A stretch of 64,000 nucleotides of DNA, from contig CATLBH010000001.1 in assembly GCA_949878745.1 (NCBI GenBank), positions 62,001 to 126,000 on the forward strand, in the 5' to 3' direction. The stretch comes from an uncultured Ruminiclostridium sp. Its GTDB lineage: Bacteria; Bacillota; Clostridia; Oscillospirales; Ruminococcaceae. Numbering within the stretch: the first letter of the stretch is position 1; each line of letters starts with the position of its first letter. Positions 9,499 to 61,633 of the stretch are shown piece after piece. Under the pieces are notes generated by a model. The model searched no databases, was not told the origin of the DNA, and was given only the letters and a program-made list of their open reading frames with translations. Made by a program: the position numbers and the translations under genes.

Positions 9499-9636
9499 GG
9501 AACCGCTGATTGTGTTACGCTACGCTTTATACCAATCCCTTTTTAAACTGACGTAATACCCACAGTTTAAAAAGGGATTGCACCCGAAACACTAATCCAC
9601 CAGTTTAAAGAGGGATTAGTATTAATCAGCGGTTCC
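9499..9636. repeat. P-family element with a nested hairpin element
   Basis: Inverted ends GGAACCGCTGATT (9499-9511) and AATCAGCGGTTCC (9624-9636), flanked by TTTAT on both sides. A complete TNA double-hairpin element (9530-9621) sits inside. Removing it together with one TTA copy restores a simple 43-bp hairpin of the P family, so the double-hairpin element is the later arrival. Confidence 0.7.
9530..9621 (+). repeat. TNA double-hairpin element, copy A (nested)
   Basis: Ends TACCAATC and GATTAGTA, flanked by TTA on both sides (9527-9529, 9622-9624). Hairpin 1 is a perfect 18-bp stem (CAATCCCTTTTTAAACTG, 9533-9550, with its complement 9563-9580). Then comes the conserved linker CACCCGAAACACTAATC and a short hairpin 2. 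Inserted inside a P-family element. Confidence 0.75.
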
Positions 9637-9750
9637 TTTATTTTATATAAAAAATTATAGCATATATCCTTAGGAAATGCAATGACAAAAGGGTTACAAT
9701 TTTTGGATATTTCGGGGGGATTTATTTTTTTGGGGCACTTAACGGACTCA

Positions 9751-9800
9751 TACTAATCTTTGGTCAGATTATAGACAAAAAAATGTTGACCAAAGATTAG
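9751..9800 (-). repeat. TNA element, solo hairpin 2, copy L
   Basis: Only the second hairpin of the family is present: TACTAATCTTTGGTCA pairs with TGACCAAAGATTAG around the conserved loop that reads TTTTGTCTATAATC on the minus strand. TCA precedes it; the far end (TA) is missing where a Q-family fragment begins. Confidence 0.6.
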
Positions 9801-9826
9801 GGAACCATTCCTATGGGAACAGTTTT
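9801..9826. repeat. Short Q-family element abutting a stop codon
   Basis: GGAACCATTCCTATGGGAACAG followed by a T run; a close match to the short Q element at 7154. Its right edge touches the TTA that is the stop codon (TAA on the minus strand) of the AraC-family gene. Confidence 0.5.
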
Positions 9827-10744
9827 TTAATTTCCACGCTTTTTTCTGTACTCTCCGGGGGTTATGCCGAAGCGTTTTTTGAACCTTCGGTTAAAATAGG
9901 AAAGATTTTCAAAGCCGCATTCCGAGGCAATGTTAAGAATGTTTTCGCCGGAGGCTAAAAGCAGCTTCGCCGCGGTATCCAAGCGGTAATTGTTCAAGTA
10001 TTCCACAAAGGAAAGTCCCATGGTTTCCTTAAAAAATCTCATAAAATACGACTTGCTGTAAAAGCAGCGGCGGGATATTTCCTCTATGGAAATTTGTTTC
10101 TGATAATTTTCCTCGATATAGGAAAGAATAATCTTAAGCTTTTGCAAAGAGCGCTCGTTTGTCTTTTTTTCCTCTCCCGTCCCTCCTTCGGTGAGCAAAA
10201 GATACATTATCTGAAAAAGACAGCCCTTTACCGCCAGCTGATAGCCGTTTTTCCTTTCGCCGCAAAGCTTGTCCAAACGGGCGACCAGGCGGGAGATTTC
10301 CCCGTAGCAGGGGATACGGCTTTCGATAAGAGGGGCGATGGGGATTTCCCCGCCGCAGATAGGGTCGATGTAGTTTTTTCGGCATACGTCTTCTCCCGCC
10401 GAGTATAAAAGGGAGGACTTGAAGATAATGTTTTCGTACTCCATTGAGGCTCCGCTTTTCTGTCCGATGGAGTGAAGCTTTCCCGAGGGGACGAACACCA
10501 TATCCCCCGCCTTTACCTCGTATTCCATAAGATCCACGCTTACCGTCCCCTCACCCTTTTTGACGATTATAAACTCCGCTTCCTCGTGCCAATGTATTTT
10601 TACGGAGGAAAAATCCAGCGGTATGGTGCAGATATAGGTGTTGTAGGGAAAATCGTCGGGGGTGTGCTTTTTATGTTCCCGATAGCTTCCGTAGGGAATT
10701 TTACCCGTATTCGCCGTTTGCTCCCTATTCTCAATATTCTTCAT
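9827..10744 (-). CDS. AraC-family transcriptional regulator with cupin sensor domain
   Basis: 305 residues from the start chosen here (MKNIENREQ, with GGAGG six bases upstream); an earlier in-frame ATG would add a hydrophobic stretch with no ribosome-binding site. An N-terminal AraC-type cupin (about residues 45-130; HWHEEAEFIIVKKGEG and VFVPSGKLHS) probably binds a small ligand such as a sugar. A C-terminal pair of helix-turn-helix motifs (about 205-300) ends with FENLSYFNRRFKKRFGITP, the AraC signature. It lies back to back with the glycogen phosphorylase gene, whose control it might share, but no operator is recognisable. Confidence 0.88.
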   Translation of the reverse strand: MKNIENREQTANTGKIPYGSYREHKKHTPDDFPYNTYICTIPLDFSSVKIHWHEEAEFIIVKKGEGTVSVDLMEYEVKAGDMVFVPSGKLHSIGQKSGASMEYENIIFKSSLLYSAGEDVCRKNYIDPICGGEIPIAPLIESRIPCYGEISRLVARLDKLCGERKNGYQLAVKGCLFQIMYLLLTEGGTGEEKKTNERSLQKLKIILSYIEENYQKQISIEEISRRCFYSKSYFMRFFKETMGLSFVEYLNNYRLDTAAKLLLASGENILNIASECGFENLSYFNRRFKKRFGITPGEYRKKRGN

Positions 10745-10987
10745 ATGCGCCTCCGGAAAAAGATAGTATAGTGCAAATAAATGGCAGGATAATGCAAGAA
10801 ATAAAAGAAATTTGATATTATAATGAATGCAGAAATAAACGAATAGTATCAGCGGCATAATACTGATTTATCATTGAAGGTGTACAAAAATTCTTCGCAA
10901 GAACCATATATCGAAGTTTTTGACGGAATTTTTGTACACTTTCAAATGGGAATCAATACAAAAGCCGAACGAAAGGAAGGTCTTAAT

Positions 10988-13240
10988 ATGAACGTTTCCG
11001 AACTTACAAGGGCAAAATACGGAAAGGATATCTCTTCCTGCACCTATGAAGAGATTTATTACGCGCTTCTCGACGAGGTGCAGCGCCTTTCCTCGGCCAA
11101 AAAGCGCCCCGAATCCAAGAAAAAGCTTTATTATTTTTCTGCGGAGTTTCTTATAGGAAAGCTTCTCTCCAACAACCTGATAAATTTGGGGCTGTACGAC
11201 GAGGTGAAAAAACAGCTTGAGGAATGCGGAAAGGATATTTGCGCCGTTGAAGAGATCGAGAACGAGCCTTCTTTGGGCAACGGCGGGTTGGGAAGGCTGG
11301 CCGCCTGTTTTCTCGACTCGATAGCCACCCTCGGGCTTAACGGCGACGGAGTTGGCCTTAAATATCATTTCGGACTGTTCAGACAGGTGTTCAAGGACAA
11401 CAGGCAGACCGCGGTTCCCGACAAATGGCTCACCGACGACAGCTGGCTTATCAAGACGGACAAGACCTATCCCGTCAGATTCAAAAAAGGGATTGTTACC
11501 GCCAGAATGTACGATATCAACGTTACGGGATATGACAGCACCACTAATAAGCTTCATCTCTTCGACATTGACACCGCCGACGAATCCATAGTGAAGGACG
11601 GAATCGATTTTGACAAGGAGCTTTTCGAAAAAAACCTTACGCTGTTCCTTTACCCCGACGACAGCGACGACGCGGGACGTATGCTCAGAATATACCAGCA
11701 ATACTTTATGGTTTCGGCGGGAGCGCAGCTGCTTCTCGAGGAATGTACCGCCAAGGGGTGCAAACTTTACGATCTGGCGGATTACGCGGTGATACAGATA
11801 AACGACACCCACCCCACAATGGTGATCCCGGAGCTTATAAGGCTTCTCACGGAAAGAGGGTTGGAAACGGACGAGGCTATAGAAGCAGTTAGCAAGGCCT
11901 GTGCCTATACCAATCACACCATATTGGCGGAGGCTCTCGAAAAGTGGCCCATAAGCTATCTTAAACAGGTAGTGCCACAGCTTATGCCCATTATAGAGGT
12001 ATTGGACAACAAGGTGAGAAGGAAGTACGACGACAAGTCCCTTTACATCATCGACAAAGACGAGCGCGTTCATATGGCCCATATGGATATCCATTACAGC
12101 ATAAGCGTAAACGGCGTGGCCTCTCTTCACACCGACATACTGAAGCAGGAGGAGCTGAAGGGCTTCTACAGCATTTACCCCGAAAAATTCAACAACAAGA
12201 CAAACGGCATCACCTTCAGGAGATGGCTTCTCCACTGTAACCCCGAACTTTCCGCTTTGATATCCTCCCTTATAGGGGACGGGTATAAAAAGGACGCTTC
12301 GGAGCTTAAAAAGCTTTTGGAATTCAAAAAGGACGCGGAGGTTCTAAATAGGCTATTGGAGATCAAGAGCCTGAAAAAAAGGCAGCTTAAGGAGCATCTT
12401 CTTTCCGCCAAGAACATTGAGATAGACGAAAACTCCATATTCGACATTCAGGTAAAGCGTCTTCACGAATATAAGCGCCAGCAGCTCAACGCGCTTTATA
12501 TCATTCACAAGTACCTTGAAATAAAAGGCGGAAAAAAGCCCTCAAAGCCGATCACCGCCATTTTCGGCGCAAAGGCGGCTCCCGCTTATGTGATAGCACA
12601 GGATATAATACACCTTATACTGTGTTTAAGCGAGCTTATCAACGGCGATTCGGAGGTCAGCCCCTATCTTAAGGTGGTAATGGTGGAAAACTACAATGTC
12701 ACGGAGGCGGAAAAGCTTATACCCGCCTGCGACATATCGGAGCAGATTTCCTTGGCCTCAAAGGAAGCCAGCGGTACGGGCAATATGAAGTTTATGCTCA
12801 ACGGCGCGGTAACCTTGGGAACCGAGGACGGAGCCAACGTGGAGATACACGAGCTTGTGGGCGAAGACAGCGTTTATATTTTCGGCGAGAAGAGCGAAAC
12901 CGTGGTGGAGCGCTATAAGAAGGGCAGCTATAAGTCCAAGGAGTATTATGAGGAAAACAAGGCCATAAAAGAGGCGGTGGACTTCATCACGGGGGAGGAG
13001 CTTATGGAAATAGGCTGCGCCGAGTGTCTTGAACGGCTTTCAAAGGAGCTTATAGGCAAAGACTGGTTTATGACCTTCCCGGATTTTGACGAATATGTTA
13101 AGACAAGGGAAAAGGCTTATAAGGACTATGAAAACAGGTCGGAATGGGCGGAAAAAATGCTGGTAAATATCGCTATGGCGGGGTATTTTTCTTCGGATCG
13201 TACTATCGAGGAGTATAACAGGGATATCTGGAAGCTCTGA
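10988..13240 (+). CDS. glgP: Glycogen/alpha-glucan phosphorylase
   Basis: 750 residues; pyridoxal phosphate enzyme that releases glucose 1-phosphate from glycogen or maltodextrin. Key marks: [16 protein letters not shown] in the N-terminal half, [21 protein letters not shown], and the cofactor site [15 protein letters not shown], whose lysine after NM forms the Schiff base. Slightly shorter than the usual 790-830 residues, with a shortened N-terminus. Start at MNVSEL chosen for GAAAGGAAGG seven bases upstream; the in-frame ATG 38 codons earlier lacks one. It stands alone and ends in its own terminator, with a Q-family repeat inserted between stop and terminator. Confidence 0.96.
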
Positions 13241-13255
13241 TTGTATTTTTATTTA

Positions 13256-13381
13256 GAAAGTGTTCCAATAGGAATGGTGTGCGGATTTTCGAGCATTTTT
13301 TGTTGATGACAAGGATTTTTAACGCAGTCAGCGGCAAAATATGCCGAAAAGACGTGCGCCAATTCCTATTGGAACAGTTTC
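13256..13381. repeat. Q-family element, flanked by TTA
   Basis: Ends GAAAGTGTTCCAATAGGAAT and ATTCCTATTGGAACAGTTTC form long inverted repeats; TTA lies on both sides (13253-13255, 13382-13384). The interior (GTGTGCGGATTTTCGAGC ... GGCAAAATATGCCG) is shared with the longer copy at 16336-16669 but lacks two segments of it. The element separates the glycogen phosphorylase stop from its terminator. Confidence 0.65.
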
Positions 13382-13398
13382 TTAATTATTTATAAATT

Positions 13399-13430
13399 AC
13401 CCTCTCCGAGGATTTTCGGGGAGGGTTTTT
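13399..13430 (+). terminator. Terminator after glycogen phosphorylase
   Basis: Stem ACCCTCTCCGA with TCGGGGAGGGT followed by TTTTT, on the plus strand. Confidence 0.75.
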
Positions 13431-13457
13431 GTGTGGGGAGAAATGGGGCGGAATTAG

Positions 13458-13618
13458 GGAACCACTGATTAAATCGGATGCGCGCATCTTGCTTGCATAT
13501 TTTCCGTCAGATTGCACAACTTCTCCTTGACGGGCGCTAGCCCGCCTGCGTCGAATTTGTACAATCTGACGAAAAATCTGCCGCGCAATATACACACACC
13601 GATTTAATCAGCGGTTCC
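13458..13618. repeat. P-family palindromic element, 161 bp
   Basis: Ends GGAACCACTGATT and AATCAGCGGTTCC, flanked by a 4-bp repeat TTAG on both sides. The inside holds nested inverted repeats (AAATCGG/CCGATTT; GTCAGATTG with CAATCTGAC; GGGCGCTAGCCC), so one strand could fold almost end to end. The reverse complement occurs nearly unchanged and at the same length at 28377-28537. The short open frames on it are by-products of the repeat. Confidence 0.8.
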
Positions 13619-13635
13619 TTAGTTTTGGGTTATGT

Positions 13636-14152
13636 GAGGGATTGGCGGCGCAGCCGCGAACGGAGCGGGAGCGGAGTGAGCCGACGCGGAGCCGAAGGCG
13701 GAGCGGCGACAAATTTTCCGTTAGGAAAATTTGGGCTGCGCCCCCTGCTGTTGGGCAGTTTTGGCGTAGGAGTAGTTTTTACTGATGGGGCGGGTTGTTG
13801 AGGGGGATAGGCAAAGTACAAACAAAGTCTTTATGGGTAGGCAGTTATTGGCAATAATTGATAGGATATCAACTTAAACAGACGAAAAAGGTTTTATGGG
13901 AGCAGTTATATAAAAGAAACAGACTAAGAGTAAAACACAACATACGATAATAGCAATCGTCGGAACACATTTTATCCGAGTGAAACCTATAGTGACAATA
14001 AAACGCCCAGAGGGGGGGAAGGAAGGGATTCACCTTAAGAATCCCGCGGGCGCGGCCCCGCACGGCTCGTGCATTAAATAAGACATTGCAAAAGGGAATC
14101 GACTTTCGATAAGAACCTCCCCCTGCGGTAAGCAGTTCTCACATCAAATCTC
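13636..14152 (+). repeat. R-family composite non-coding repeat, short copy
   Basis: Matches 46590-47240 over most of its length. The left part is a GC-rich module bounded by GGCGCAGCC and GGGCTGCGCC with an inner hairpin AAATTTTCC-GTTA-GGAAAATTT. Then an AT-rich middle, a G-run block (CCAGAGGGGGGG), and an end with TTTCGATAAGAACC and a purine-rich tail. Unlike the copy at 46.6 kb it lacks the central GGTGAAACC...AACAGGCT module. No open frame looks real. It fills the gap before the cyclase gene. Confidence 0.65.
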
Positions 14153-14160
14153 CCCCGCCT

Positions 14161-16092
14161 TTATTTAAGATCAAGCTTTTTCCTAACCCTCTTACTCTGA
14201 TACATATTATCATCGGCTTCTTTCATCATGGCGGAGTAATTTTTTCCCTTTTCGGTTTCGCTTATCCCGAAGGAAAATCTTACGGGGACGGCTTCGCCTT
14301 TTTCAACCTCCACGGTTGTGGCGTTTCTTATTTCCTTAAGGTGATCTATGTCGTCAAAGAGAGCCTCTCTGTTGTCATAGCCGTAGATAAACAGAACGAA
14401 TTCGTCGCCGCCGAGCCTGGCGGAAACCTTTTCGCAGGTTCCAAAGTTTCTTATTATGTCGGCGATTCCCTGAAGGTACAGGTCGCCCGCCTTGTGGCCG
14501 CGGCTGTCGTTTATCTGTTTAAGGCCGTCCGCGTCTATCATTATAATTGCGCCCTCGCCCAATTCCTTAGTATGGGCTTTATCGAGAGATTCCCTCACTC
14601 TGCTTTCAAAGCCGCGCCTGTTGTAAAGCTTGGTAAGGATATCTATGTCGCGTTCGCATTCCAGCTGTTTTCTCGTGCGCACTTCCTCGGTTATGTCGAT
14701 GATTATGCCCATGACGCCGTTTTTTACGGTAAGCTCTTCGTATTTTATGTATCTTCCGTCACAGGTTCCGTCGTCCACACGGTAAATTTCTTCCCCGTCG
14801 ACGTCCGTTTTTTGAACGTGTTCCTTAAAATAGCGTCTGAAGCTCGCGCAATCGGAGCGGAGGACTCTGTCCTCTTCTTTACCTATACCCAGTATTTTGG
14901 AGGTTTTATCGGTAAAGCGGACGGTTTTCATATTTTCGTTGTACTCGTAGACGCCGATTTGCATATTCGCCTTGTCAAGAATATAGGAGATTTTATCGGT
15001 GCTTGAGAAAAGGGTTTTTATCATGGTGTTGATATGATCGCTAAGCTCGGAGAACTCAAGACAGGTTCTCACGTCAGCCGCACGATCGAGGTTTCCATCG
15101 GCAATCTCTTTAAGCTCGCTGTTCAGTTCCTTTATACCGCTGATGATTATTCTGTTAAGGTACATTGACACCGTTTTTACCAGAAAAAACGATATCAGCG
15201 CTATGCCCAGCGCCAAAATAAGAGTCGTCGTAACCACATTGCGGTACATGGAGCCGTTTGTGATGATCCTTCCAAGAATGTATTCCGATTCGAATACGGT
15301 AAACACGCAAAAGCAGCTTTTTCCGTTGACGGAGGCGTAAAAGGAGCTGGTACCCAAGTGTATTTTTTCGGTTGGTATACCTATATCCGAAAGGTTTTTT
15401 CCGATATTTTCCCTTGTGGTGGAGCCGCGTATGGTTCCGCTTTCAATTTCCGCGGCGTAAAGAGCCACAGTGCTGTTGGCTCTCAGAAGGGTAAAAATGT
15501 AGGACAGCTCGTTTTTTTCGGTTGCCTTCAATACGCGCTCGGGTCTCATTCCCACCTGAACGAAAAATTTTCCGTTACGGCTCCAGACGGCGGAATACTG
15601 AACCATTTCTTGTGTGGCGGTGTTGGGCATAACATCCTGACACAGCTTCGCGCTTTTGTCATCCAGCATTTTGGCGAAAAAGCCAATCTGTTCCCCGTCG
15701 TTTACGCTCATATTGTAATACTGCGGGTGGGTGCCGTTATAGATAACACCCTTTTCGTTAAAAAGGTGTATCTCGTCCACGTCGCAGAATTCGGCTATCT
15801 TTTTCAGCTCGTCAATGTCGTCCAATACCGAAGGGTCGTTTTGTATTATATAGGCGATGGCTTCGGCGCTGTGAAGACACATACGGCTGTAGTCCGCCTT
15901 CACCGACTCCAGTTCGGCGCGGTTTTCGGACAAAAGCTGCCGAACCTGGCTGAAAACGCTTTCTGAGCTGATTACCGTCTGACGCTGCTCGTTACAGACT
16001 TGCAGCACAACGGAGGTTATAAGTATCAGCGCCGCAATTAAAGCGGTTATCCGCATCAGATACCTAACCGTTATTGTTTTTATATCCCGCAT
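14161..16092 (-). CDS. Diguanylate cyclase with extracellular Cache-type sensor, HAMP, PAS and GGDEF domains
   Basis: 643 residues. A first membrane segment (about residues 12-30), an extracytoplasmic sensor region to about 285 (Cache-like), a second membrane segment (LILALGIALISFFLVKTV), a HAMP-like linker (about 325-375), a PAS region, and a C-terminal GGDEF domain (about 475-640). The active-site loop is intact (ARLGGDEFVLF), as is DADGLKQINDSRGHKAGD, so it should make cyclic di-GMP from two GTP. There is no EAL domain. Transcribed away from a hybrid histidine kinase with the same sensor plan; both have consensus promoters in the shared gap. I saw no c-di-GMP riboswitch nearby. Confidence 0.93.
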   Translation of the reverse strand: MRDIKTITVRYLMRITALIAALILITSVVLQVCNEQRQTVISSESVFSQVRQLLSENRAELESVKADYSRMCLHSAEAIAYIIQNDPSVLDDIDELKKIAEFCDVDEIHLFNEKGVIYNGTHPQYYNMSVNDGEQIGFFAKMLDDKSAKLCQDVMPNTATQEMVQYSAVWSRNGKFFVQVGMRPERVLKATEKNELSYIFTLLRANSTVALYAAEIESGTIRGSTTRENIGKNLSDIGIPTEKIHLGTSSFYASVNGKSCFCVFTVFESEYILGRIITNGSMYRNVVTTTLILALGIALISFFLVKTVSMYLNRIIISGIKELNSELKEIADGNLDRAADVRTCLEFSELSDHINTMIKTLFSSTDKISYILDKANMQIGVYEYNENMKTVRFTDKTSKILGIGKEEDRVLRSDCASFRRYFKEHVQKTDVDGEEIYRVDDGTCDGRYIKYEELTVKNGVMGIIIDITEEVRTRKQLECERDIDILTKLYNRRGFESRVRESLDKAHTKELGEGAIIMIDADGLKQINDSRGHKAGDLYLQGIADIIRNFGTCEKVSARLGGDEFVLFIYGYDNREALFDDIDHLKEIRNATTVEVEKGEAVPVRFSFGISETEKGKNYSAMMKEADDNMYQSKRVRKKLDLK

Positions 16093-16335: not shown

Positions 16336-16669
16336 GAAACTGTTTCAATAGGAATGGTGTGCGGATTTTCGAGCATATTTTGTTGATGACAAGGCAAAAA
16401 TCCGCAGGCGGGCAGCTTACGCGATAAGCCCGTCAAGGATTTTTAACACACGATGTGCACACCAATCCCTTTTTAAACTGACGTAATACCCACAGTTTAA
16501 AAAGGGATTGCACCCGAAACACTAATCCAACAGTTTAAAGAGGGAGTAGTATTAGTCATTTGCCCAAAGTCGGCGCAAGGATGCGCCGACTACAAAGCAA
16601 ATTACAAAACGAAAGTCAGCGGCAAAATATGCCGAAAAGACGTGCGCCTATTCTTATTGGAACAGTTTC
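16336..16669. repeat. Q-family element, long copy, flanked by TAA
   Basis: Ends GAAACTGTTTCAATAGGAAT and TTCTTATTGGAACAGTTTC; TAA on both sides (16333-16335, 16670-16672). It contains the same core as 13256-13381, an extra hairpin (AGTCGGCGCA with TGCGCCGACT) and a nested TNA double-hairpin element (16460-16551). Confidence 0.7.
16460..16551 (+). repeat. TNA double-hairpin element, copy B (nested)
   Basis: Almost the same sequence as copy A: stem CAATCCCTTTTTAAACTG with its perfect complement, linker CACCCGAAACACTAATC, short second hairpin. The outer ends are worn (CACCAATC, GAGTAGTA) and no clear target duplication remains. Confidence 0.7.
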
Positions 16670-19888: not shown

Positions 19889-19993
19889 TACTAATCTTTA
19901 ATCATATAGTAGACGAAGTCGGAAATATAATTAAAGATTACACCCGAAACACTAATCTTTGGTCAACATTTTTAATCTGACCAAAGATTAGTA
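19889..19993 (+). repeat. TNA double-hairpin element, copy C
   Basis: Ends TACTAATC and GATTAGTA with TTA on both sides (19886-19888, 19994-19996). Hairpin 1 arms AATCTTTAATCATAT / ATATAATTAAAGATT (one mismatch), conserved linker, hairpin 2 arms CTAATCTTTGGTCA / TGACCAAAGATTAG (perfect). It lies between two divergent genes; the rest of this gap holds only the pyrB promoter. Confidence 0.75.
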
Positions 19994-20106: not shown

Positions 20107-20134
20107 TTGAAAAAAAATTTTTTTGTGTTATAAT
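20107..20134 (+). promoter_or_regulatory. Probable pyrB promoter
   Basis: TTGAAA (20107-20112), 16-base spacer, TATAAT (20129-20134), followed by a short leader with AAAGGAGG before the ATG at 20165. No attenuator or PyrR site is visible. Confidence 0.6.
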
Positions 20135-20164
20135 TATAACAGTCAAAAAAAGGAGGCTGCGTTT

Positions 20165-21250
20165 ATGGCAAAAAACACTTTTCCTCATTTAATCGATCTG
20201 GACAGCTATCCCGTTTCGGCCTGGAACAGTATCACCGCTCTCGGGCTGGACATCAAGAGAAACCCGCATATTTACGTGGGGGCCTGTAACGGGAAAATAA
20301 TGGGCACGCTTTTCTATGAGCCCTCCACCCGCACACAGATGAGCTTTCAGAGCGCGATGCTAAGGCTCGGCGGCGGAATAGTCGGCTTTGACAATCCTCT
20401 TAATTCCTCGGTGGCAAAGGGGGAATCCATAAGGGATACCACGAAAATTGCCAGCAGCTATTCGGACATTATCGTTATGCGGCACCCGCTGGAAGGCTCG
20501 GTAAAGGCGGCCGCGCTCACGGCGGACTGTCCCGTAATAAACGCGGGGGACGGGGGACATCTTCACCCCACTCAGACGCTCACCGATTTAATCACCTTAA
20601 GAGCGGAAAAGGGAACGCTCGGTGGGCTTACGGTGGGATTCTGCGGTGATTTGAAGAACGGAAGGACGGTACATTCGCTTTTAAAGGCGCTTTGCTGTTA
20701 CGAAAACAATAAATTCGTGCTTATTTCCACGGACGAGCTTAAGGTTCCCACCTATATAAAGGACAGGATATCGGCGGCTGGGAAGGAATATAAAGAGGTT
20801 AACTCTCTTGAGGAGGCCATACCGGAGCTGGACGTGCTTTATATGACGAGGATACAGAGGGAAAGGTTTTCGGATCCTTCGGAGTATGAAAAGCAGAAGC
20901 ATATTTTCAGGCTGGACATAAAAAAAATGAGGGCGGCAAGAAAGGATATGATAGTGCTCCACCCGCTGCCCAGAGTCGACGAGATAGCGGTGGAGGTGGA
21001 TAACGACCCTCGGGCGCTTTATTTCAAGCAGGCCAATTACGGTATGTATGTGAGAATGTCGCTTATACTGTCGGTGCTTAACGACGATATAAAAACGGCT
21101 CCGCTGCTGACGGGGGAGGTTATGCCAAAGGTGTGCTGCAAAAACCTGAAATGTATTACGGCCGGCGAGGAGAATTTACCCCACAGCTTCAGGAATCACG
21201 GAGGGGTGTTGGAGTGCGAGTACTGTGATGAAAGGCTGCTTTTGGAGTGA
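20165..21250 (+). CDS. pyrB: Aspartate carbamoyltransferase with a PyrI-like zinc-binding tail
   Basis: 361 residues; condenses carbamoyl phosphate and aspartate in pyrimidine synthesis. The carbamoyl-phosphate motif YEPSTRTQMSF and the HPLPRVDE loop are intact. The usual catalytic chain is about 305-310 residues; this one runs on with a zinc ribbon C-x4-C-x20-C-x2-C (Cys325, 330, 351, 354), the pattern of the C-terminal domain of the regulatory chain PyrI, without PyrI's allosteric nucleotide domain. In the E. coli enzyme that zinc domain contacts the catalytic chain, so here it may stabilise the oligomer in cis. Start chosen for AAAGGAGG. No other pyr gene lies in the window. Confidence 0.93.
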   Translation: MAKNTFPHLIDLDSYPVSAWNSITALGLDIKRNPHIYVGACNGKIMGTLFYEPSTRTQMSFQSAMLRLGGGIVGFDNPLNSSVAKGESIRDTTKIASSYSDIIVMRHPLEGSVKAAALTADCPVINAGDGGHLHPTQTLTDLITLRAEKGTLGGLTVGFCGDLKNGRTVHSLLKALCCYENNKFVLISTDELKVPTYIKDRISAAGKEYKEVNSLEEAIPELDVLYMTRIQRERFSDPSEYEKQKHIFRLDIKKMRAARKDMIVLHPLPRVDEIAVEVDNDPRALYFKQANYGMYVRMSLILSVLNDDIKTAPLLTGEVMPKVCCKNLKCITAGEENLPHSFRNHGGVLECEYCDERLLLE

Positions 21251-21301
21251 TACTGATCTTTGGTCGGATTATAGACAAAAAATGTCGATGAAAGATTAGT
21301 A
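21251..21301 (-). repeat. TNA element, solo hairpin 2, copy M, at the pyrB stop codon
   Basis: TACTGATCTTTGGTC...AAAGATTAGTA with loop reading TTTTTGTCTATAATCC on the minus strand. Flanked by TGA on both sides; the left TGA is the pyrB stop codon itself. Confidence 0.65.
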
Positions 21302-26525: not shown

Positions 26526-26580
26526 TACTATTTTCAAATTAAAAAGATTGCAAAATTTAGTGGATAATTTGAAATTAGTA
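26526..26580. repeat. TNA element, single-hairpin variant
   Basis: TACTATTTTCAAATTA pairs with TAATTTGAAATTAGTA apart from one mismatch; flanked by TAA on both sides (26523-26525, 26581-26583). It has the family's ends and target duplication but a stem sequence seen nowhere else in the window and no central linker. Confidence 0.55.
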
Positions 26581-35999: not shown

Positions 36000-36091
36000 T
36001 ACTAATCCCTTTTAAAACTGTTGGATTAGTGTTTTGGGTGCAATCCCTTTTTAAACTGTGGGTATTACGTCAGTTTAAAAAGGAATTGGTA
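36000..36091 (-). repeat. TNA double-hairpin element, copy F
   Basis: Reverse orientation, flanked by TGA on both sides (35997-35999, 36092-36094). Stem 1 is the AATCCCTTTTTAAACTG type; linker reads TGCACCCAAAACACTAATCC on the minus strand; hairpin 2 is ACTAATCC(AACAGTTTTAAAA)GGGATTAGT. It lies between fmt and the peptidase gene. Confidence 0.75.
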
Positions 36092-41728: not shown

Positions 41729-42090
41729 ATGCCTAATGTAAAGCCGGTATCCGATTTAAGGAACTATGATGAGGTTCTTCGGGAGGTTTCGGAGGGGGAG
41801 GCGGTTTTTCTTACGCGAAAGGGGAGGGTGTGCTTTGTGATTGAGGATATTGGGGAATATGAGAGGCGGTAGGCGGCTATCAAATTGATTTCTAATACTA
41901 TTTGCAAATTATTTATAGACAAAATAAAATTTGGAATGATTTGCAAATAGTGCTTTGGGTGTGATTTTTAATCAATCTGTTTGTCAACAGATTGATTAAA
42001 AATCAGTATAAGCTGTGGGAAAGTGAGGAATCGGTTAGGAAAATGGGGTGGATTAGTCAGGCGGAGGTTGAGAGGGAGCTTGAATTGTGA
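41729..42090 (+). pseudogene. Phd/YefM-type antitoxin, broken by a stop codon and a hairpin element
   Basis: The frame starts MPNVKPVSDLRNYDEVL, typical of Phd/YefM antitoxins, and stops at TAG after 47 codons (41870-41872). Reading through gives AAIKLIS, then the TNA element copy G (41896-42008), and then in frame KLWESEESVRKMGWIS and a tail ending ERELEL. Removing the 113-bp element plus one TAA duplication leaves exactly 82 codons with one internal TAG (probably from CAG, Gln). No toxin gene is adjacent. An AAGGG site precedes the start. Confidence 0.8.
41896..42008 (-). repeat. TNA double-hairpin element, copy G, inside an antitoxin gene
   Basis: TAA on both sides (41893-41895, 42009-42011). 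Read on the minus strand: hairpin 1 is a perfect 19-bp stem TGATTTTTAATCAATCTGT with its complement around a TGACAA loop, linker CACCCAAAGCACTA, and hairpin 2 ACTATTTGCAAAT / ATTTGCAAATAGT around a loop with TTTTGTCTATAAAT. The stems share almost nothing with other copies, while linker, loop and ends do. Confidence 0.78.
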
Positions 42091-47282: not shown

Positions 47283-47288
47283 TTATTT

Positions 47289-47520
47289 TGGATAGAGGCG
47301 CGGTCTTGATCAGTACTTTTCGCGTTAACGGGTCTGTACGCGGCGGAAAGGAAAGGCAATGCCGCCGAAAAAGCGGCTGACAGACACGGTTCGCTTTTGG
47401 CTTCGGCGCCGAACAGGGTCGAGGCTGTCATCGCTGCGCAGGGCGCGGATGGAGAGCTATCGGCAATATTGCCCTATGATATGTTTTCTTTATCCGACCC
47501 ACCGCGAGTCGGTTTTTTTA
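47289..47520 (+). ncRNA. Lysine riboswitch (L box) with terminator
   Basis: Conserved L-box pieces in order: GGATAGAGGCGCGG, GATCAGTA, GGAAAGG, AATGCCGCCGAA with the following GCGGCTGACAG, and a closing Rho-independent terminator CCGACCCACCGCGAGTCGG plus a T7 run at 47494-47519. Binding of lysine should favour the terminator and switch off asd-dapA-dapB. The gene order behind it confirms the call. Confidence 0.93.
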
Positions 47521-48666: not shown

Positions 48667-48769
48667 TACCAATCTTTAATCAAGTTGTAGACTTGATTAA
48701 AGATTGCACCCCAAACACTAATCCTTGATCCTCCTTTTTACTTGTCTATAATTCGATCAAAGATTAGTA
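48667..48769 (+). repeat. TNA double-hairpin element, copy I, inside the lysine operon
   Basis: TTA before, TTG after. Hairpin 1 is a perfect 16-bp stem CAATCTTTAATCAAGT / ACTTGATTAAAGATTG with loop TGTAG; linker CACCCCAAACACTAATC; hairpin 2 arms end in TTGATC / GATCAA with a loop containing TTGTCTATAATTC. Begins three bases after the asd stop and ends 22 bases before dapA. Confidence 0.78.
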
Positions 48770-55791: not shown

Positions 55792-58302
55792 TCATTCCGT
55801 CATAAGCTCGGTTACGGATATTTTTCTTATTCTGCCCGCGCTGATGTAGGTTACGATCAGGCAGAATAATACAAGCGCTGCCGCCGTACCGATTATCAGC
55901 GTCGGGCTTTCGGGAATCCGTACGCCGAACGCCGCCATCCAAAATGCACGCTGCACCCATACCGACAACACCGCGGCAATGCAGGACGAAATGACCGTTA
56001 CGGGGAGAATACGCAGAGTAAGCTGTATCATAAGCTCCCTTGACGTATAACCCATACTTTTCATGATACCAAATTCCCTGCGCTGTCTTTTTACGGCGGA
56101 TACGGCTATAATGCTCAATATCACCGCTACCACGACGGCAATGAATATCACGGCGCAGAACGAAAACGTCTTTGTAACCGCGGCTATGGGTCCCATCTGG
56201 GATTTTGCAATATCCTTCATGGAGGACATTTCCTTTATCACGAAACGGCTGCTGTTTCCGCTGATGACGGTATCGCCTATTCTGACAGCATAGTCAACGT
56301 CGGTAACGCCGTACTGAGAGATAAGCACCGCCATTTTCTCGTCCGCTTTCGCTCTGATACGCTCCTCAAGACTTCCCTGTGCAGACTGTTCATACGCCGT
56401 GTCCTTTGCGCTTGCACCGTACATAGCGATGAGCTTATCCGTAAAGGCAGGGCGATCCTCCTCGTTTCTGAGAGTTATCTCCACTGTGTTCGGGCGGTCG
56501 TTCGGACGAATGCGCCGGTAACCGTCCTCGGTCATGTAGACGCTCATGCCGCTGTTGTTCATGGCGGTGACAATGCCCGTTATGATATAGTTTTTTTCAC
56601 AAACATCTCCCTTGATGATGATATTGTCGCCTATGTGCCGATTTTCCGTCTCCTCTCTCTTTGCGGATATCATGATCTCGTCGTCGTATTCGGGGAAACG
56701 TCCCGTTTTAAGGTGGATATTATCCGTGAGGGAAAAATCGGCGTAGGAAACGCAGACCGCACCAATCGTACCATAGTTGCTGCCCTTTATTTCCACATAG
56801 TTTTCTGTCGCGCGGGTCAGAAGAACCTTTTCCACTTCGGGGAACTTACGTATCTCATCACAGAATTTTTCCCCGTCCACTCCGCTCATCATAAGGACGC
56901 TTATGTCTGAAAACTCCATTCCCATAACTCCCATAAGCCCGTTATAGCCGCTCTTGAAAAAGTCAAAGGTGTACACACTGAACATTACGGCAACTCCCGC
57001 GGCGATAATACAGACGCCCATGCCTATATTGGAGCGGAGATCGTTAAATACGCCCTTGAAGGCGAGACGGAGGTTTATGCTGCGTTTCATTTTTTCAAGT
57101 GGAAGTATGTTTTTCCCGAAATGATGGGTCTTTATGCCCTTGCGAAACGCCACGACGGGAGGGAGCTTTTTCACCCTCGCCGCCCTTGACAGCGCAAAGA
57201 GAGCGACAAGCGCTATTATCGATATTACCACGATAAAAATGCGGAGAACATCCACATCCGTGTGTACGTCGCGGTTCATCATACCCCTTGTGAGAGTATC
57301 CATGACCGGGGAAAAAGCTGCCGCCGTTATGCCGCCGATGATTGCGCCAACGCCCCCCGTAAGGATATATTCGAAAATGTAGGAAAGAGAAAGCTCGCGG
57401 CTTGTATACCCCAACGCTTCCAGTACCCCTATCTGCACCATTTGTTCTTCAATATCCTTTGATATCTTGTGAAGAATAAGAAAGAGCGCGGATATCATGG
57501 TGACAACGGATAGGAATACGCTCAGATACAGAAAAATATTAAGAAAATTGGTTTCAAGCCGTCTCTCTGTATCCTTATTGAACGCCATTACTATATTTGA
57601 AACATTCTCACTTGATTTTTCGGAGCATTTTTCATAGTATTCCACATGGGAGAATTCCCTTTCCGTGTTAAATGCTATCATGCGATATTCCTTATAAACA
57701 GCGGACAACAGCACCATATCATCATCTGTAATGATACATTTTAACATATTGTCGGAATTATACAGACCCGTGCTGTAAAAACCGGCTACGGTAAAAGGGT
57801 AATCTCTGCCGCCCGAAACAAGAGTAAACGTTTCCCCCGGAGCAAAACCGCCTGTGATCTCAAAATACTGAGGCAGCCATACGGGGTGAGACAGTTTTTC
57901 GATCTCATCATCGGGGAGGGCATTCAGTTTCTTAAAATTTTCCATCTTCCGCTCTGTGCTTTCGGTCGCAAACACCATATTATAGGCGATACTTTCACCC
58001 TTCTTTGATAATGCCGATGCACCAATACCGAGAAGCACACTGCTTTCCCGGACATCGGTTACATTATATTCATCTTCCAGAATATCACGGTATATATCGC
58101 GATATTTGTCAGATTGGAATAACAATGTAAAATCAGCAGAGCCTGTTTCCTCAAAGCAGCGGTCAAACGCGCTGTTTATCTGTGTAATGCTGACGGCAAA
58201 GACCGCCATGAGAAATGCCGTAACAAGAGTGAGAAAAACAATTGCAGCCGCCTCACGCTTGTTTCGCTTCAAATTGAACAATGATAATCTGAATATCTTC
58301 AT
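55792..58302 (-). CDS. FtsX-type ABC transporter permease
   Basis: 836 residues. One N-terminal membrane segment, a large extracytoplasmic domain (about 40-250), three segments, then a second block repeating the plan (about 430-700 outside, three segments at the end): two FtsX/MacB core domains (FLSVVTMISALFLILHKI and IFIAVVVAVILSIIAVSAV). Works with the ATPase encoded three bases upstream. This class exports or senses antimicrobial peptides or moves lipids, driven by shape change rather than a pore. Confidence 0.93.
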   Translation of the reverse strand: MKIFRLSLFNLKRNKREAAAIVFLTLVTAFLMAVFAVSITQINSAFDRCFEETGSADFTLLFQSDKYRDIYRDILEDEYNVTDVRESSVLLGIGASALSKKGESIAYNMVFATESTERKMENFKKLNALPDDEIEKLSHPVWLPQYFEITGGFAPGETFTLVSGGRDYPFTVAGFYSTGLYNSDNMLKCIITDDDMVLLSAVYKEYRMIAFNTEREFSHVEYYEKCSEKSSENVSNIVMAFNKDTERRLETNFLNIFLYLSVFLSVVTMISALFLILHKISKDIEEQMVQIGVLEALGYTSRELSLSYIFEYILTGGVGAIIGGITAAAFSPVMDTLTRGMMNRDVHTDVDVLRIFIVVISIIALVALFALSRAARVKKLPPVVAFRKGIKTHHFGKNILPLEKMKRSINLRLAFKGVFNDLRSNIGMGVCIIAAGVAVMFSVYTFDFFKSGYNGLMGVMGMEFSDISVLMMSGVDGEKFCDEIRKFPEVEKVLLTRATENYVEIKGSNYGTIGAVCVSYADFSLTDNIHLKTGRFPEYDDEIMISAKREETENRHIGDNIIIKGDVCEKNYIITGIVTAMNNSGMSVYMTEDGYRRIRPNDRPNTVEITLRNEEDRPAFTDKLIAMYGASAKDTAYEQSAQGSLEERIRAKADEKMAVLISQYGVTDVDYAVRIGDTVISGNSSRFVIKEMSSMKDIAKSQMGPIAAVTKTFSFCAVIFIAVVVAVILSIIAVSAVKRQRREFGIMKSMGYTSRELMIQLTLRILPVTVISSCIAAVLSVWVQRAFWMAAFGVRIPESPTLIIGTAAALVLFCLIVTYISAGRIRKISVTELMTE

Positions 58303-58305
58303 AAG

Positions 58306-59064
58306 TCACCAGCCCATTTCTTCAAGGAATGCCGTCAGCTTTTCGCGGCGCTCTTTAAGGTCGTCCCCGCCGTATTTCGTCATTTTGTGTTCGCCGACAG
58401 CCTTACCGTCGCGCAGATAGATGACCCGCGTTCCGCGCAGCGCGGTCTTGATATCGTGCGTTACCATAACGATGCTCTGGCCGTTCTCGTGTACCCCGGT
58501 GAAGATGTCAAGAACATCCCTGCCCGATGCGGAGTTGAGCGAACCGGTGGGCTCGTCCGCGAAAAGAATTTTCGGCTCGTTTATCACAGCGCGCACGATT
58601 CCGACACGCTGCGCCTCACCGCCGGAAAGCTGGTTCGGATATTTCTTCTGCATCTCCTCATCAAGCCCGACCTTTGCGAGCAGTTCCTTTACCCTTTTGA
58701 TAAGCTCGGGGGAGTTTTTCTGTACGGCAAACGCGCCCGTCAGCACATTGTCAAGGACACTCTGATTTTCAAGCAGATAAATGCTCTGAAAAACGAATCC
58801 GCAGTTTTTTCTTCTGAACACCGCAAGCTGATCGTTCGTATAGCCCGAAATATCGGCGTCGCCGAAGAACACCTTTCCCAAAGTGGGCTTATCCATTCCC
58901 GAAAGAGCATAGAGCAGGGTGGACTTGCCCGAACCCGAAGCGCCCATGATTACGGTAAAATCGCCCTCCATGATCTCCAGATCGAGGTTCCTGATAACGT
59001 GCTGCTGTGCGGCGCCGTTTGAAAAAGACTTGCAAAGCTTTTCCGTGCGCAAAACAGGGATCAT
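58306..59064 (-). CDS. ABC transporter ATPase, MacB/LolD type
   Basis: 252 residues: Walker A GASGSGKSTLL, signature LSGGEAQRVGIV, Walker B ILFADEPTGSL and H-loop VTHDIKTAL. The start is set at MIPVLRTEKL with AAAGG upstream; a GTG three codons earlier is too close to that site. Partner of the downstream FtsX-type permease. It sits behind an operator-like set of direct repeats, 108 bases after the kinase gene. Confidence 0.95.
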   Translation of the reverse strand: MIPVLRTEKLCKSFSNGAAQQHVIRNLDLEIMEGDFTVIMGASGSGKSTLLYALSGMDKPTLGKVFFGDADISGYTNDQLAVFRRKNCGFVFQSIYLLENQSVLDNVLTGAFAVQKNSPELIKRVKELLAKVGLDEEMQKKYPNQLSGGEAQRVGIVRAVINEPKILFADEPTGSLNSASGRDVLDIFTGVHENGQSIVMVTHDIKTALRGTRVIYLRDGKAVGEHKMTKYGGDDLKERREKLTAFLEEMGW

Positions 59065-59111
59065 ATATAACACTACCTTTCAAATAGATGATTGTTGTAT
59101 CCTATGATAGT

Positions 59112-59171
59112 ATTATACATGATCCCGTTAATAATTTCCTTGTCAAAATCTTGTTAAATTCTTGTCTTTTT
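59112..59171 (-). promoter_or_regulatory. Response-regulator-type promoter with three 11-bp direct repeats
   Basis: On the minus strand a TATAAT (59112-59117) has no matching -35 hexamer at 17 bases. Directly upstream of that position are three direct repeats with 11-base period, read on the plus strand as CTTGTCAAAAT (59139-59149), CTTGTTAAATT (59150-59160) and CTTGTCTTTTT (59161-59171). That is the usual layout of a promoter activated by an OmpR-type regulator, like the one encoded just upstream. Confidence 0.7.
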
Positions 59172-59172
59172 C

Positions 59173-60459
59173 TTAACTGAGCGGAATAAGCAGCGTTACG
59201 CACAGCCCGTTTTCATTCCTGACAGATAGCTCTCCGCCCATTTTATCCATAAGTATCCTTGCGATATACAGACCTAAACCGCTGCCTTCCTTGTCGCCAT
59301 GTTGCTTTCCGCGATAGAATTTGTTGGTGATAAGCTCTATCTCATCTTCGGGAACGCCCGGGCCGCTGTCACCGATCAATACTTCAAGAAAGCTCTCATC
59401 AAGACGGAAATAAATGTCTATGGGAGTACCCGAGTATTTGTAAGAATTGGATATGATATTGCCAATAACCTGCGACAAACGCCGCTTGTCAATATGTACA
59501 ATGACCCGGGGTATTTCTGGTATGCGCACAAGCCCTCTGTCATCATATCCGGAAATGATCTCCGCTATAACGGCGGAATTTTCGTCCGAGCATTTTACCT
59601 TGAATTCGCCCAAGTCCTCCAAAGCCGAAGAAAACAGGTCGCTTACAAGCGCCGCTATTTCATCGGCCCTTTTACAGATATTATTCATCTTCGCGGTCAT
59701 ATCCTCTGTAACCGTTATTTCCCGACCCTCATTTTGAGAGAATACCGCCGCCATCAGCTCAGCTGTGAGTTTAATACCCGTCACGGGCGTTTTCAGGTCG
59801 TGAGAGAGCGACGCGATAAGCTCACGCTCTTTCTTTTGCAGGGAAAGCTCTCTTGCTCCGGACGCTTTCAGCTCCTCCCGCATGATATCAAAGCTCTCCG
59901 AAAAAGCGCCGAACAAATTGCCCTTATCCATTTCAAGAGGTCGGTCAAGGTCGCCTGCCGCCACATAAGACGCAAAATCTTTCATCTTAGCAAAGGGCAG
60001 TATGATCCTTTTGCGGATATACGCCCCGAAAGCCGCCGCACCGCCGATAAGGAAAAAACCGCATACACAGTAAACAGCAATGATATTTGTACGCAGGCGG
60101 TCAAAACGCTTATTGCTGTCTGTGAGTACGACGCTGCCTGTTATCTGATTATTCTCTGTGATATAGGTATAGGGGTAACGCCTTTGCATTGCCGTCTCAA
60201 CGGTTATCGCTTCCGAACGGTCGGAACGGTTATCATAAATAACATTCCCGTTTATGTCAAGTATTACATATTCCCGTTCCGGAGCTGTGTTTTTAGGCGG
60301 CATATTGTCTAAAATCATCTTATGCGCAATCTCATTGAGCAATAGCACATCATAATTATTTTGTGAAAAATTATCTGTGCCGGTGAGCTTCACAACAGCA
60401 AACAGCCCGACAGCGAACAGCAGGACAAGAAGCACCGTAAATCTGTAATATCCCTTCAT
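59173..60459 (-). CDS. Sensor histidine kinase
   Basis: 428 residues from the start MKGYYRFTV, whose ATG overlaps the regulator's stop (ATGA). Two membrane segments (about 8-25 and 120-142) with a small sensor loop of about 95 residues between, HAMP, HisKA with SHDLKTPVTG, and an ATPase domain (NIISNSYKYSG, GDSGPGVPEDE, GSGLGLYIARI). Pairs with the response regulator. The larger sensor loop separates it from the loop-less BceS-type kinases. Confidence 0.94.
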   Translation of the reverse strand: MKGYYRFTVLLVLLFAVGLFAVVKLTGTDNFSQNNYDVLLLNEIAHKMILDNMPPKNTAPEREYVILDINGNVIYDNRSDRSEAITVETAMQRRYPYTYITENNQITGSVVLTDSNKRFDRLRTNIIAVYCVCGFFLIGGAAAFGAYIRKRIILPFAKMKDFASYVAAGDLDRPLEMDKGNLFGAFSESFDIMREELKASGARELSLQKKERELIASLSHDLKTPVTGIKLTAELMAAVFSQNEGREITVTEDMTAKMNNICKRADEIAALVSDLFSSALEDLGEFKVKCSDENSAVIAEIISGYDDRGLVRIPEIPRVIVHIDKRRLSQVIGNIISNSYKYSGTPIDIYFRLDESFLEVLIGDSGPGVPEDEIELITNKFYRGKQHGDKEGSGLGLYIARILMDKMGGELSVRNENGLCVTLLIPLS

Positions 60460-61190
60460 GGCGCCGTCTCTTCCATAATGTAGCCCACACCCCATACGGT
60501 TTTTATGAGCCGTGGTTCTTTGGGGTCGGCTTCGGTCTTTTCACGCAGATGTCGGATATGTACGGCGATCGTACCCTCGTTGATATATTCATCTTCCCAT
60601 ACATCTTTGAGCAGATCGTCCTTTGAAACGATCTTGCCCCTGTTTGTGTAAAGATAATACAGCAGTTTGTATTCCAGTGCTTTGAGGGTGATCTCCCTGC
60701 CGTCTGCAATGATCTTGTGAATATTTGTGTTAAGGTACAATTCACCTGTCAATTTAACAAGACCGTCCTCATTCTGATGATAATTCCGTACAGCGTGCGT
60801 ATTATTATCCCGTGTCCTGTCGTATCTCAAAACGGCAGCTTTCACCTTGGCAAGCAGAACGCTGAGCGTATAGGGCTTTTTGATATAATCATCGCCGCCT
60901 ATGTTCAGCGCGATAAGCACATCGTCATCGCTTGTTCGGGCACTTATGAAGAATATCGGCAGGTCATAGTTTTCCCGTATCTTCCTGCAAAGATCGAAGC
61001 CTGATTTTTCTCCAAGATTGATATCAAGCAAGAGCATTGAAACATCGTGTTTTTCAAGAAAAGCCACCGCATTGGCATAGCTTGTTACATATGAGGTCTT
61101 TACGCCGAACATATTGAAATACTCGGAAGTAGCCGTGGCTATCATTTCATCGTCATCTATCATTAGGACTTTATAGCTTTCCGAATCCAT
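60456..61190 (-). CDS. OmpR-family response regulator
   Basis: 244 residues: receiver (MIDDDEMIATATS, phospho-acceptor in LLLDINLGEKSG, conserved Lys in KKPYTLSVLL) and winged-helix DNA-binding domain (ALEYKLLYYLYTNRGKIVSKDDLL ... TEADPKEPRLIKTVWGVGY). Likely binds the 11-bp direct repeats before the ABC operon. First gene of the unit. Confidence 0.95.
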   Translation of the reverse strand: MDSESYKVLMIDDDEMIATATSEYFNMFGVKTSYVTSYANAVAFLEKHDVSMLLLDINLGEKSGFDLCRKIRENYDLPIFFISARTSDDDVLIALNIGGDDYIKKPYTLSVLLAKVKAAVLRYDRTRDNNTHAVRNYHQNEDGLVKLTGELYLNTNIHKIIADGREITLKALEYKLLYYLYTNRGKIVSKDDLLKDVWEDEYINEGTIAVHIRHLREKTEADPKEPRLIKTVWGVGYIMEETAP

Positions 61191-61247
61191 AACTCATCTC
61201 ACTCACTTATAATATTTGTTGTTGAAATATCATTCTTTTATGTTATT

Positions 61248-61276
61248 ATTATACTAAACCTTGTTTCAAAAGTCAA
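61248..61276 (-). promoter_or_regulatory. Promoter of the two-component genes
   Basis: Minus strand TTGACT (61271-61276), 17-base spacer, TATAAT (61248-61253), about 55 bases before the regulator start. Confidence 0.75.
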
Positions 61277-61431
61277 TCATAAATGTGTTTGGTCACCTGG
61301 TAGTACATAAAAAGGGCTCCATATAATTTCCGGTAAATCGCTCCCGTTATTTCCTTATTTTGGTTATAACGCAAATTTGGAGAGTGTGTCAAGAGCAATG
61401 GCTATATAATAATTTTTAGAACATGTTCTTA

Positions 61432-61520
61432 TACCAATTCATTTTTAAACTGACGTAATACCCACAGTTTAAAAAGGGATTGCCCCCGAAACACTAATCC
61501 AACAGTTTCAAGAGAGATTA
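61432..61520 (+). repeat. TNA double-hairpin element, copy J
   Basis: Worn copy of the A type: TACCAATT start, arms with mismatches (ATTCATTTTTAAACTG / CAGTTTAAAAAGGGAT), linker CCCCCGAAACACTAATC, second hairpin decayed. Its end runs straight into copy K. Confidence 0.65.
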
Positions 61521-61633
61521 TACTAATCTTTAATCATATTGTAAACGAAGTCGGAAATATGATTAAAGATTACACCCGAAATACTAATCTTTGGTCAACA
61601 TTTTTTTGTCTATAATCTGACCAAAGATTAGTA
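61521..61633 (+). repeat. TNA double-hairpin element, copy K, in tandem with J
   Basis: Complete element with TTA on both sides (61518-61520, 61634-61636): AATCTTTAATCATATT / AATATGATTAAAGATT, linker CACCCGAAATACTAATC, CTAATCTTTGGTCA / TGACCAAAGATTAG. Together with J it fills the gap at the right edge of the two-component/ABC cluster. Confidence 0.78.

What the first reader, a model, noticed from the sequence alone, without database searches (positions are those of the whole stretch)
9530..61633. Family of double-hairpin elements: 14 copies or derivatives, no transposase
Fourteen intergenic pieces share the ends TACTAATC / GATTAGTA and, when complete, the same plan: hairpin 1, the linker CACCCGAAACACTAATC, hairpin 2. 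Complete copies: 9530, 16460, 19889, 26617, 31830, 36000, 41896, 48667, 61432, 61521; solo or fused derivatives: 9751, 21251, 26526, 42104. They occur in both orientations, and all but one lie between genes. I know of no named bacterial MITE or REP family with this linker, though I cannot search for one.
Basis: partly seen in the sequence, partly recalled or inferred. Interest (0 to 1): 0.85.

Follow-up and report, generated by a model that had tools for sequence, protein, structure and literature searches.

The report
Double-hairpin jumping DNA without genes
About a hundred small gene-less jumping-DNA fragments, each built as two back-to-back hairpins, lie in this gut-type bacterial genome; related genomes hold the enzyme that very probably moves them, and the odd part is that the hairpins keep their shape while their letters change.

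Summary
In detail: the 14 pieces are where stated, and the linker occurs 99 times (at most 1 mismatch) in the window's 2.67-Mb draft genome, 0 for the reversed pattern.

They are non-autonomous transposons (MITEs). Identical 3-bp flanks, mostly TNA, occur at 103 of 140 copies (shuffle mean 57, 0 of 5000); a nested insertion shows the 3-bp duplication exactly.

The missing transposase exists in relatives, not in this draft: a two-ORF IS630-related IS (winged-helix ORFA, DDE_3 ORFB) with TACT/AGTA tips. TAA flanks both sides in the 3 of 7 places with both ends readable. Its left end matches a double-hairpin element of the same genome at 25 of 29 bases, and in G347 a common plain MITE at 28 of 29.

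The unusual part: across 17 clusters stems differ widely but stay Watson-Crick paired (450 of 497 pairs, 11 G-T), and each hairpin usually matches itself better than the two ends match each other. In the largest tight subfamily resident copies decay one arm at a time, so pairing seems renewed in spreading lineages. How is not shown.

New variant of a known kind.

The parts
9530..9621 (+). Complete double-hairpin element, type A; flanks TTA/TTA
9751..9803 (+). Single right-hand hairpin, type B; right tip lost; left flank TCA
16460..16551 (+). Complete element, type A, tips decayed (CACC, GAGTAGTA); flanks GCA/TTA
19889..19993 (+). Complete element, type B; flanks TTA/TTA
21251..21301 (+). Single right-hand hairpin; flanks TGA/TGA, the first TGA being the stop of ORF 20123-21250
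26526..26580 (-). Single hairpin of the L120 stem type; flanks TAA/TAA
26617..26698 (-). Complete element, type B left hairpin with a short right hairpin; flanks TAA/CAA
31830..31941 (+). Complete element, type B; flanks TTA/TTA
36000..36091 (-). Complete element, type A, linker CACCCAAAACACTAATC; flanks TGA/TGA
41896..42008 (-). Complete element of another stem subfamily, linker CACCCAAAGCACTA; flanks TAA/TAA
42104..42156 (+). Hybrid single hairpin: left arm of hairpin 1, right arm of hairpin 2; flanks TTA/TTA
48667..48769 (+). Complete element, linker CACCCCAAACACTAATC; flanks TTA/TTG
61432..61520 (+). Type A element lacking its last three bases, abutted by the next element
61521..61633 (+). 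Complete element, type B, abutting the former; flanks TTA/TTA

Best explanation
The pieces are MITEs: short transposons without genes, moved by a transposase supplied in trans. The unit runs from TAC to GTA (82-126 bp in copies with clear tips) and duplicates 3 bp of target, usually TNA (shown). The supplier is (inferred) an IS630-related insertion sequence with two overlapping reading frames, seen in related genomes with TACT/AGTA tips and TAA/TAA flanks (shown there). The outer arm of each hairpin is the terminal inverted repeat; the inner arm is its complement, so each end is itself a palindrome, and the two palindromes are joined by the linker CACCCNAARCACT. The inner ends have changed tips (CACT..., ...TTACACC), which fits cutting at the outer tips only, so that the pair moves as one unit (inferred). 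Stem letters changed between subfamilies while pairing was kept (shown). Resident copies of the tightest subfamily lose pairing one arm at a time (shown), so pairing is probably renewed in the lineages that spread, either because foldable copies move better or because one arm is copied from the other (not decided).
For: 3-bp flank identity 103 of 140, shuffle mean 57.0, 0 of 5000; where both flanks are TNA the middle base agrees in 102 of 117. Window: 9 of 14 pieces. Nested insertion L265 against un-nested L240: exact 3-bp TAA duplication; L273 and L255 agree with 3 bp though their host copies differ elsewhere. Tip-plus-box pattern TACTNNT-N14-TAGACAAA: 98, 70, 41, 16, 0, 7, 8 in seven element-bearing genomes, reversed pattern 0 in all seven. 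IS in G001 with that end directly before ORFA; left end 25 of 29 identical to a double-hairpin element end of the same genome, and 28 of 29 for IS against MITE in G347. ORFB: DDE_3 6.3e-23 and NCBIfam IS630 128.6 bits (cut-off 100). Both-ended IS copies L318, L319, L320: TAA/TAA. Distant relatives: Sinorhizobium and Caballeronia copies TTA/TTA.
Against: No such transposase in G000, G008, G015, G034, G061 or G089, although all carry elements or MITEs with these ends; of the four genomes in the 394-genome draw that are rich in the end motif only G347 has the transposase, and five genomes have the transposase with at most one motif. ORFA alone scores 52.7 bits, under the NCBIfam cut-off. IS630 is taught as duplicating TA, not TNA. 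Type A lacks the TAGACAAA box. Left ends of L318 and L320 lack it too. 37 of 140 copies lack identical flanks. No IS copy was seen to move.
Confidence: 0.85

Rival explanations
1. REP/REPIN-like or IS200/IS605-derived (PATE-like) elements, moved as single-stranded hairpins by a Y1 (HUH) transposase.
For: Hairpin pairs, about a hundred copies, mostly intergenic, fold kept while letters change. One Y1 gene exists in the genome.
Against: Target duplications of 3 bp, which Y1 enzymes are not expected to leave (recalled). The single Y1 gene is a 154-aa IS200-type protein with no element in its 3.4-kb locus. No GTAG foot (recalled hallmark of REPs) is part of the ends. DDE-type IS with the same tips found.
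Confidence: 0.04
2. Regulatory or terminator RNA structures kept by selection on transcripts, with mobility only in the past.
For: Strong folds, pairing kept through change, mostly intergenic.
Against: G-T pairs are 11 of 497 among cluster consensus stems, few for an RNA constraint. All gene arrangements occur: tandem 40, divergent 21, convergent 16 of 86. No Rfam match over gathering score at any element. Present in 5 of 60 relatives only.
Confidence: 0.05
3. Stem matching is only a by-product: template switching at palindromes copies one arm from the other, with no role for the fold in movement.
For: Nearly pure Watson-Crick matching; one element (L147) has its hairpin-1 loop as the exact reverse complement of another's (L132), as fold-back or inversion between arms would give.
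Against: In type B, 31 one-arm changes and 0 compensated in 71 hairpins, so correction is not fast in resident copies; it may still act on sources. Compatible with the best explanation on origin and movement.
Confidence: 0.35

Closest known systems
RUP of Streptococcus pneumoniae, thought to be mobilised by IS630-Spn1 (passage in PMC2229807)
   Same: Short gene-less repeat with inverted ends, tied to an IS630-type IS by shared ends
   Different: RUP targets TA; here 3-bp TNA. No double-hairpin plan is described for it in the passages seen
IS630 family (NCBIfam NF033545, Pfam DDE_3)
   Same: ORFB passes the NCBIfam cut-off and DDE_3 cut-off
   Different: 3-bp TNA duplication instead of the TA dinucleotide; two reading frames in the copies seen here
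Fot group of pogo transposons, eukaryotic IS630-Tc1-mariner relatives with TAA duplications (passages in PMC7386202)
   Same: A TA-type transposase lineage that came to duplicate TAA
   Different: Eukaryotic, not shown to be close in sequence (not tested)
IS1031 subgroup of IS5, target TNA with 3-bp repeat (passage in PMC12016507)
   Same: Target TNA, 3-bp duplication
   Different: Other transposase family and other ends; IS5-like loci in these genomes lacked TACT ends
CIR of Caulobacter (table note in PMC2229807)
   Same: The 5' and 3' parts each form a long stem-loop
   Different: Different organism and ends; transposase partner not compared here
REPIN/RAYT and PATE elements (recalled)
   Same: Paired hairpins, high copy number
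   Different: No RAYT found, duplication present

Membership tests
MITE | Short, no transposase gene, inverted tips | tested here: met
   82-126 bp, TAC...GTA tips
MITE | Target-site duplication | tested here: met
   103 of 140, 0 of 5000 shuffles; nested empty site
MITE | Ends shared with an autonomous element | tested here: met
   In G001 (25 of 29) and G347 (28 of 29, plain MITE); not met within the window's own draft genome
IS630 family (for the partner IS) | IS630-type DDE transposase | tested here: met
   NF033545 128.6 bits over cut-off 100 for ORFB; ORFA alone 52.7, below
IS630 family (for the partner IS) | TA duplication | tested here: not met
   TAA/TAA in the three both-ended copies; hence called IS630-related, not canonical IS630
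REP/REPIN with RAYT | RAYT (Y1) gene beside or with the repeats | tested here: not met
   One IS200-type Y1 gene, no element in its 3.4-kb locus
IS200/IS605-derived (PATE) | No target duplication | tested here: not met
   3-bp duplication
IS1031/IS5 | IS5-type transposase with matching ends | tested here: not met
   DDE_Tnp_4 and DDE_Tnp_1 loci of five genomes have no TACT-type pair of ends
Any Rfam family | Match over the gathering score | tested here: not met
   Window: only a lysine riboswitch at 47285-47467

The most novel reading that the evidence does not exclude
The hairpins are part of the transposition mechanism of this IS630-related group: the transposase (or the replication fork) handles each end as an extruded DNA hairpin, and each round of movement or fold-back copying restores the match of the arms, so that subfamilies can change their stem letters freely while tip, spacing and fold persist. 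That would be hairpin-dependent movement by a DDE transposase.
Probability: 0.15. Interest if true: 0.8.

Novelty: new variant of a known kind. Interest (0 to 1): 0.52.

Why it matters
It gives an orphan, highly repeated element a likely partner, and describes a bacterial IS630-related group that duplicates TNA and has spawned many MITE subfamilies (double-hairpin and plain). Because subfamilies with different stem letters share one fold, they are a ready natural series for asking what a DDE transposase needs at its ends (tip, box, spacing, fold) and how palindromes keep their arms matched. In draft genomes such copies also sit at contig ends.

Tried and rejected
Led nowhere: DDE_Tnp_4 and DDE_Tnp_1 as partner; viral contigs scanned with the linker (0) and with TNA + tip + box (11 stretches, none looking like an element on inspection); thirteen stretches of G347 of 3.5-8 kb in search of the IS (MITE-type ends but no transposase recognised); comparison of IS5-like loci. 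The genome-contig hit L046 (Cytophagaceae) has no hairpins and is taken as chance.

Considered and dropped: kissing of loops by TAGACAAA and TTTGTCTA (follows from inverted repeats, proves nothing); fast arm-to-arm correction in resident copies (type B: 31 one-arm changes, 0 compensated, in 34 + 37 hairpins). Against a simple picture: within type A, compensated against one-arm changes are 9/6 (G016), 4/4 (G001), 2/2 (G060) and 0/57 (G000, plus 7 changed on both sides and unpaired), same call.

Limits: the rows of A1 were picked partly for good stems, so the figures are favoured; one search uses no stem criterion (129 elements; those with ambiguous tips dropped; one cluster of 3 scores 6 of 15 because of what I read as a one-base bulge). 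The TSD test kept 140 of 205 linker matches, dropping those without both tips or flanks and doubtful tips; tips there were placed with the help of the stem. An earlier test gave 43 of 59. CM counts are capped at 63 scored candidates a genome and used stricter filters. Single hairpins were sought strictly; the window's four are not among the 13.
Full report
WHAT WAS CHECKED. The window is G000:C1:62001-126000 of a 2.67-Mb draft genome in 108 contigs. The linker with at most one mismatch occurs 99 times in the genome, 52 forward and 47 reverse; the reversed pattern gives 0.

DISTRIBUTION. Of 60 genomes, the own one included, 3 have the exact degenerate linker (G000, G001, G016) and 5 have covariance-model matches (also G008 with 37 and G034 with 4); all five are of one genus, and 31 further genomes of that genus and 24 genomes of 24 other genera have none (capped and filtered search). 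Records of the own genome may be left out there. Viral contigs: 0.

ANATOMY. TNA | TAC [hairpin 1] CACCCNAARC [hairpin 2] A | TNA, the last base of the right tip GTA lying outside the stem. In 129 elements found without any stem criterion, 17 sequence clusters appear, several with quite different stems, also within G000. Their consensus stems are Watson-Crick at 450 of 497 positions, G-T at 11, unpaired at 36. On A1, chosen partly for good stems, 95% of 597 cells pair, 109 cells changed on both sides and 4 on one side; sliding the partner by one column drops pairing to 48-50%. In five of the six clusters with three or more members hairpin 1 pairs at 15 of 15 positions while the two outer ends agree at 12-13 of 15; the sixth has 6 against 12, from an apparent bulge; three clusters of two have 13-15 against 9. 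So each hairpin is usually matched to itself better than the two ends are to each other. Six elements folded as DNA have z from -8.9 to -11.4. The hairpin-1 loop of L147 is the exact reverse complement of that of L132.

MOBILITY. Of 140 elements with both tips and flanks, 103 have identical 3-bp flanks; shuffled partners give 57.0 on average, at most 72 in 5000 tries; 2-bp and 4-bp matches are below expectation. By genome: G000 61 of 86, G001 15 of 18, G016 21 of 30 (0 of 5000 each), G060 5 of 5 (1002 of 5000, not significant). With TNA on both sides (117), the middle base agrees in 102. In the window 9 of 14 pieces have identical flanks, one of them duplicating the TGA stop of ORF 20123-21250. 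A nested plain MITE in G347 shows the empty site: L265 reads GGCTATAA[element]TAATAAGTTC, un-nested L240 GGCTATAATAAGTTC; L273 and L255 agree with 3 bp, but their host copies differ elsewhere. A strict search found 13 distinct single hairpins in all loci then held, 7 with identical flanks; shuffled sequence gave 0.

END MOTIF AND PARTNER. Hairpin 1 and the reverse complement of hairpin 2 share the tip TACT and, in many subfamilies, TAGACAAA from position 22. TACTNNT-N14-TAGACAAA occurs 98, 70, 41, 16, 0, 7 and 8 times in G000, G001, G008, G016, G034, G060 and G061, which were chosen as element carriers; reversed pattern 0 in all. In 394 genomes of the order 14 have a match: G000 (98), G347 (59), G089 (8), G015 (6) and ten with one each, no more than the reversed control gives. 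G347, G089, G015 and G061 bear such ends on plain MITEs of about 97-286 bp without the linker. Type A lacks the box.

Fetching ends that looked unpaired led to L293 in G001: TTA|TACTAATTGAATATCAAAATATAGACAAA, then ORFA (171 aa) and, after a run of A, ORFB, broken near its 3' end by one of the MITEs at the contig end. The IS lies in a resolvase-type gene (PF00239). ORFB matches DDE_3 (6.3e-23) and ORFA HTH_33 (8e-10); against the NCBIfam IS630 model ORFB scores 128.6 bits (cut-off 100) and ORFA alone 52.7. Its left end equals that of a double-hairpin element end of G001 at 25 of 29 bases. Of ten element- or MITE-bearing genomes four have an ORFB match: G001, G347 (two), G060 (two, one weak and of another IS630 kind) and a fragment in G016; G000, G008, G015, G034, G061 and G089 have none. 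In G347 the IS begins TACTAAACACCAATTAAACTATAGACAAA (L310) and, in another copy, ends ...GGTGTTTAGTA (L307); a plain MITE beginning TACTAAACACCAATAAAACTATAGACAAA or a near variant makes up 32 of the 41 one-mismatch rows listed for G347, and the two left ends agree at 28 of 29. In G060 the IS ends ...AAAATAGGATTAGTA, like type A right ends.

Of 394 genomes of the order six have the transposase at 1e-20, in seven places. In three places both ends could be read (L318, L319, L320): TACT/AGTA tips and TAA on both sides; the others lack a readable end. Of five left ends read (L293, L310, L318-L320) two have the exact box and one a near box. Among the genomes of this draw the end motif and the transposase go together only in G347: G000, G015 and G089 have the motif without the transposase; G278, G310, G331, G378 and G414 have the transposase with at most one motif. 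More distant plasmid relatives: Sinorhizobium TTA|TACCAACCC...GGGTTGGTA|TTA and Caballeronia TTA|TTCAATTT...AAATTGAA|TTA; an Acidithiobacillus copy was ambiguous and a Gloeocapsopsis copy gave no repeat (2 of 4). So TNA is not peculiar to these gut genomes.

THE OWN GENOME. G000 has one DDE_3 gene (L312), a single-ORF IS630-like gene whose flanks show TIR-like CCAAATAAACCTTGCCAAAA and no TACT tips. Its elements are orphans as far as the draft shows.

HOW IT MOST LIKELY WORKS. The transposase recognises the outer ends, cuts at the tips and joins to TNA (inferred from anatomy and partner). The inner tips are changed, so the pair moves as a unit (inferred). Why each end is a palindrome is open. 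In type B of G000, 34 copies of hairpin 1 and 37 of hairpin 2 show 19 and 12 one-arm changes (13 of these 31 giving G-T) and none compensated; in type A compensated changes are 9 (G016), 4 (G001), 2 (G060) and 0 (G000) against 6, 4, 2 and 57 one-arm ones. This points to pairing being renewed in spreading lineages, by preference for foldable copies or by copying one arm from the other; the data do not separate these. The low share of G-T pairs between clusters speaks for a DNA rather than an RNA constraint, not conclusively.

LITERATURE. PMC10969869, PMC2229807, PMC12016507, PMC8533490 and PMC7386202 were seen as found passages, the rest as listings. PMC8533490 states that IS630-Tc1-mariner members duplicate TA (Sailor: TATA); PMC7386202 reports TAA in Fot. 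Statements on REP, RAYT, PATE and Y1 enzymes are recalled.

VERDICT. A real MITE family, ordinary in kind and odd in build, of an IS630-related, TNA-duplicating IS: new variant of a known kind.

Noticed in passing
window 47285-47467 (+): Lysine riboswitch, 94.9 bits.
   Followed up: no
L312 (G000:C16:51890-52315): A second, single-ORF IS630-like gene in the own genome with different ends; not the partner.
   Followed up: partly
L003 (G000:C18:17485-17841): Single IS200-type Y1 transposase gene in the own genome, no double-hairpin element in its locus.
   Followed up: partly
G016 contigs C10, C16, C42, C64, C136, C153, C163, C165, C166, C190, C192, C193, C196: In the listed rows these 13 contigs have an element within their first 4 bases: near-identical copies break the draft assembly.
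   Followed up: no
L202 (G061:C2), L220, L301: A plain MITE of 152-157 bp with the same end design and no linker; in L202 it sits within a PDDEXK_2 (nuclease-transposase family) gene.
   Followed up: partly
G347 loci L233-L246, L255, L258, L262-L274: At least four subfamilies of plain MITEs with TACT tips in one genome, some nested in each other.
   Followed up: partly
L293 1073-1471 (G001:C52): The IS interrupts a resolvase/serine-recombinase gene (PF00239, 3.9e-19).
   Followed up: no
window 21251-21301: Insertion exactly at a gene's TGA stop codon; the duplication leaves the stop intact.
   Followed up: no
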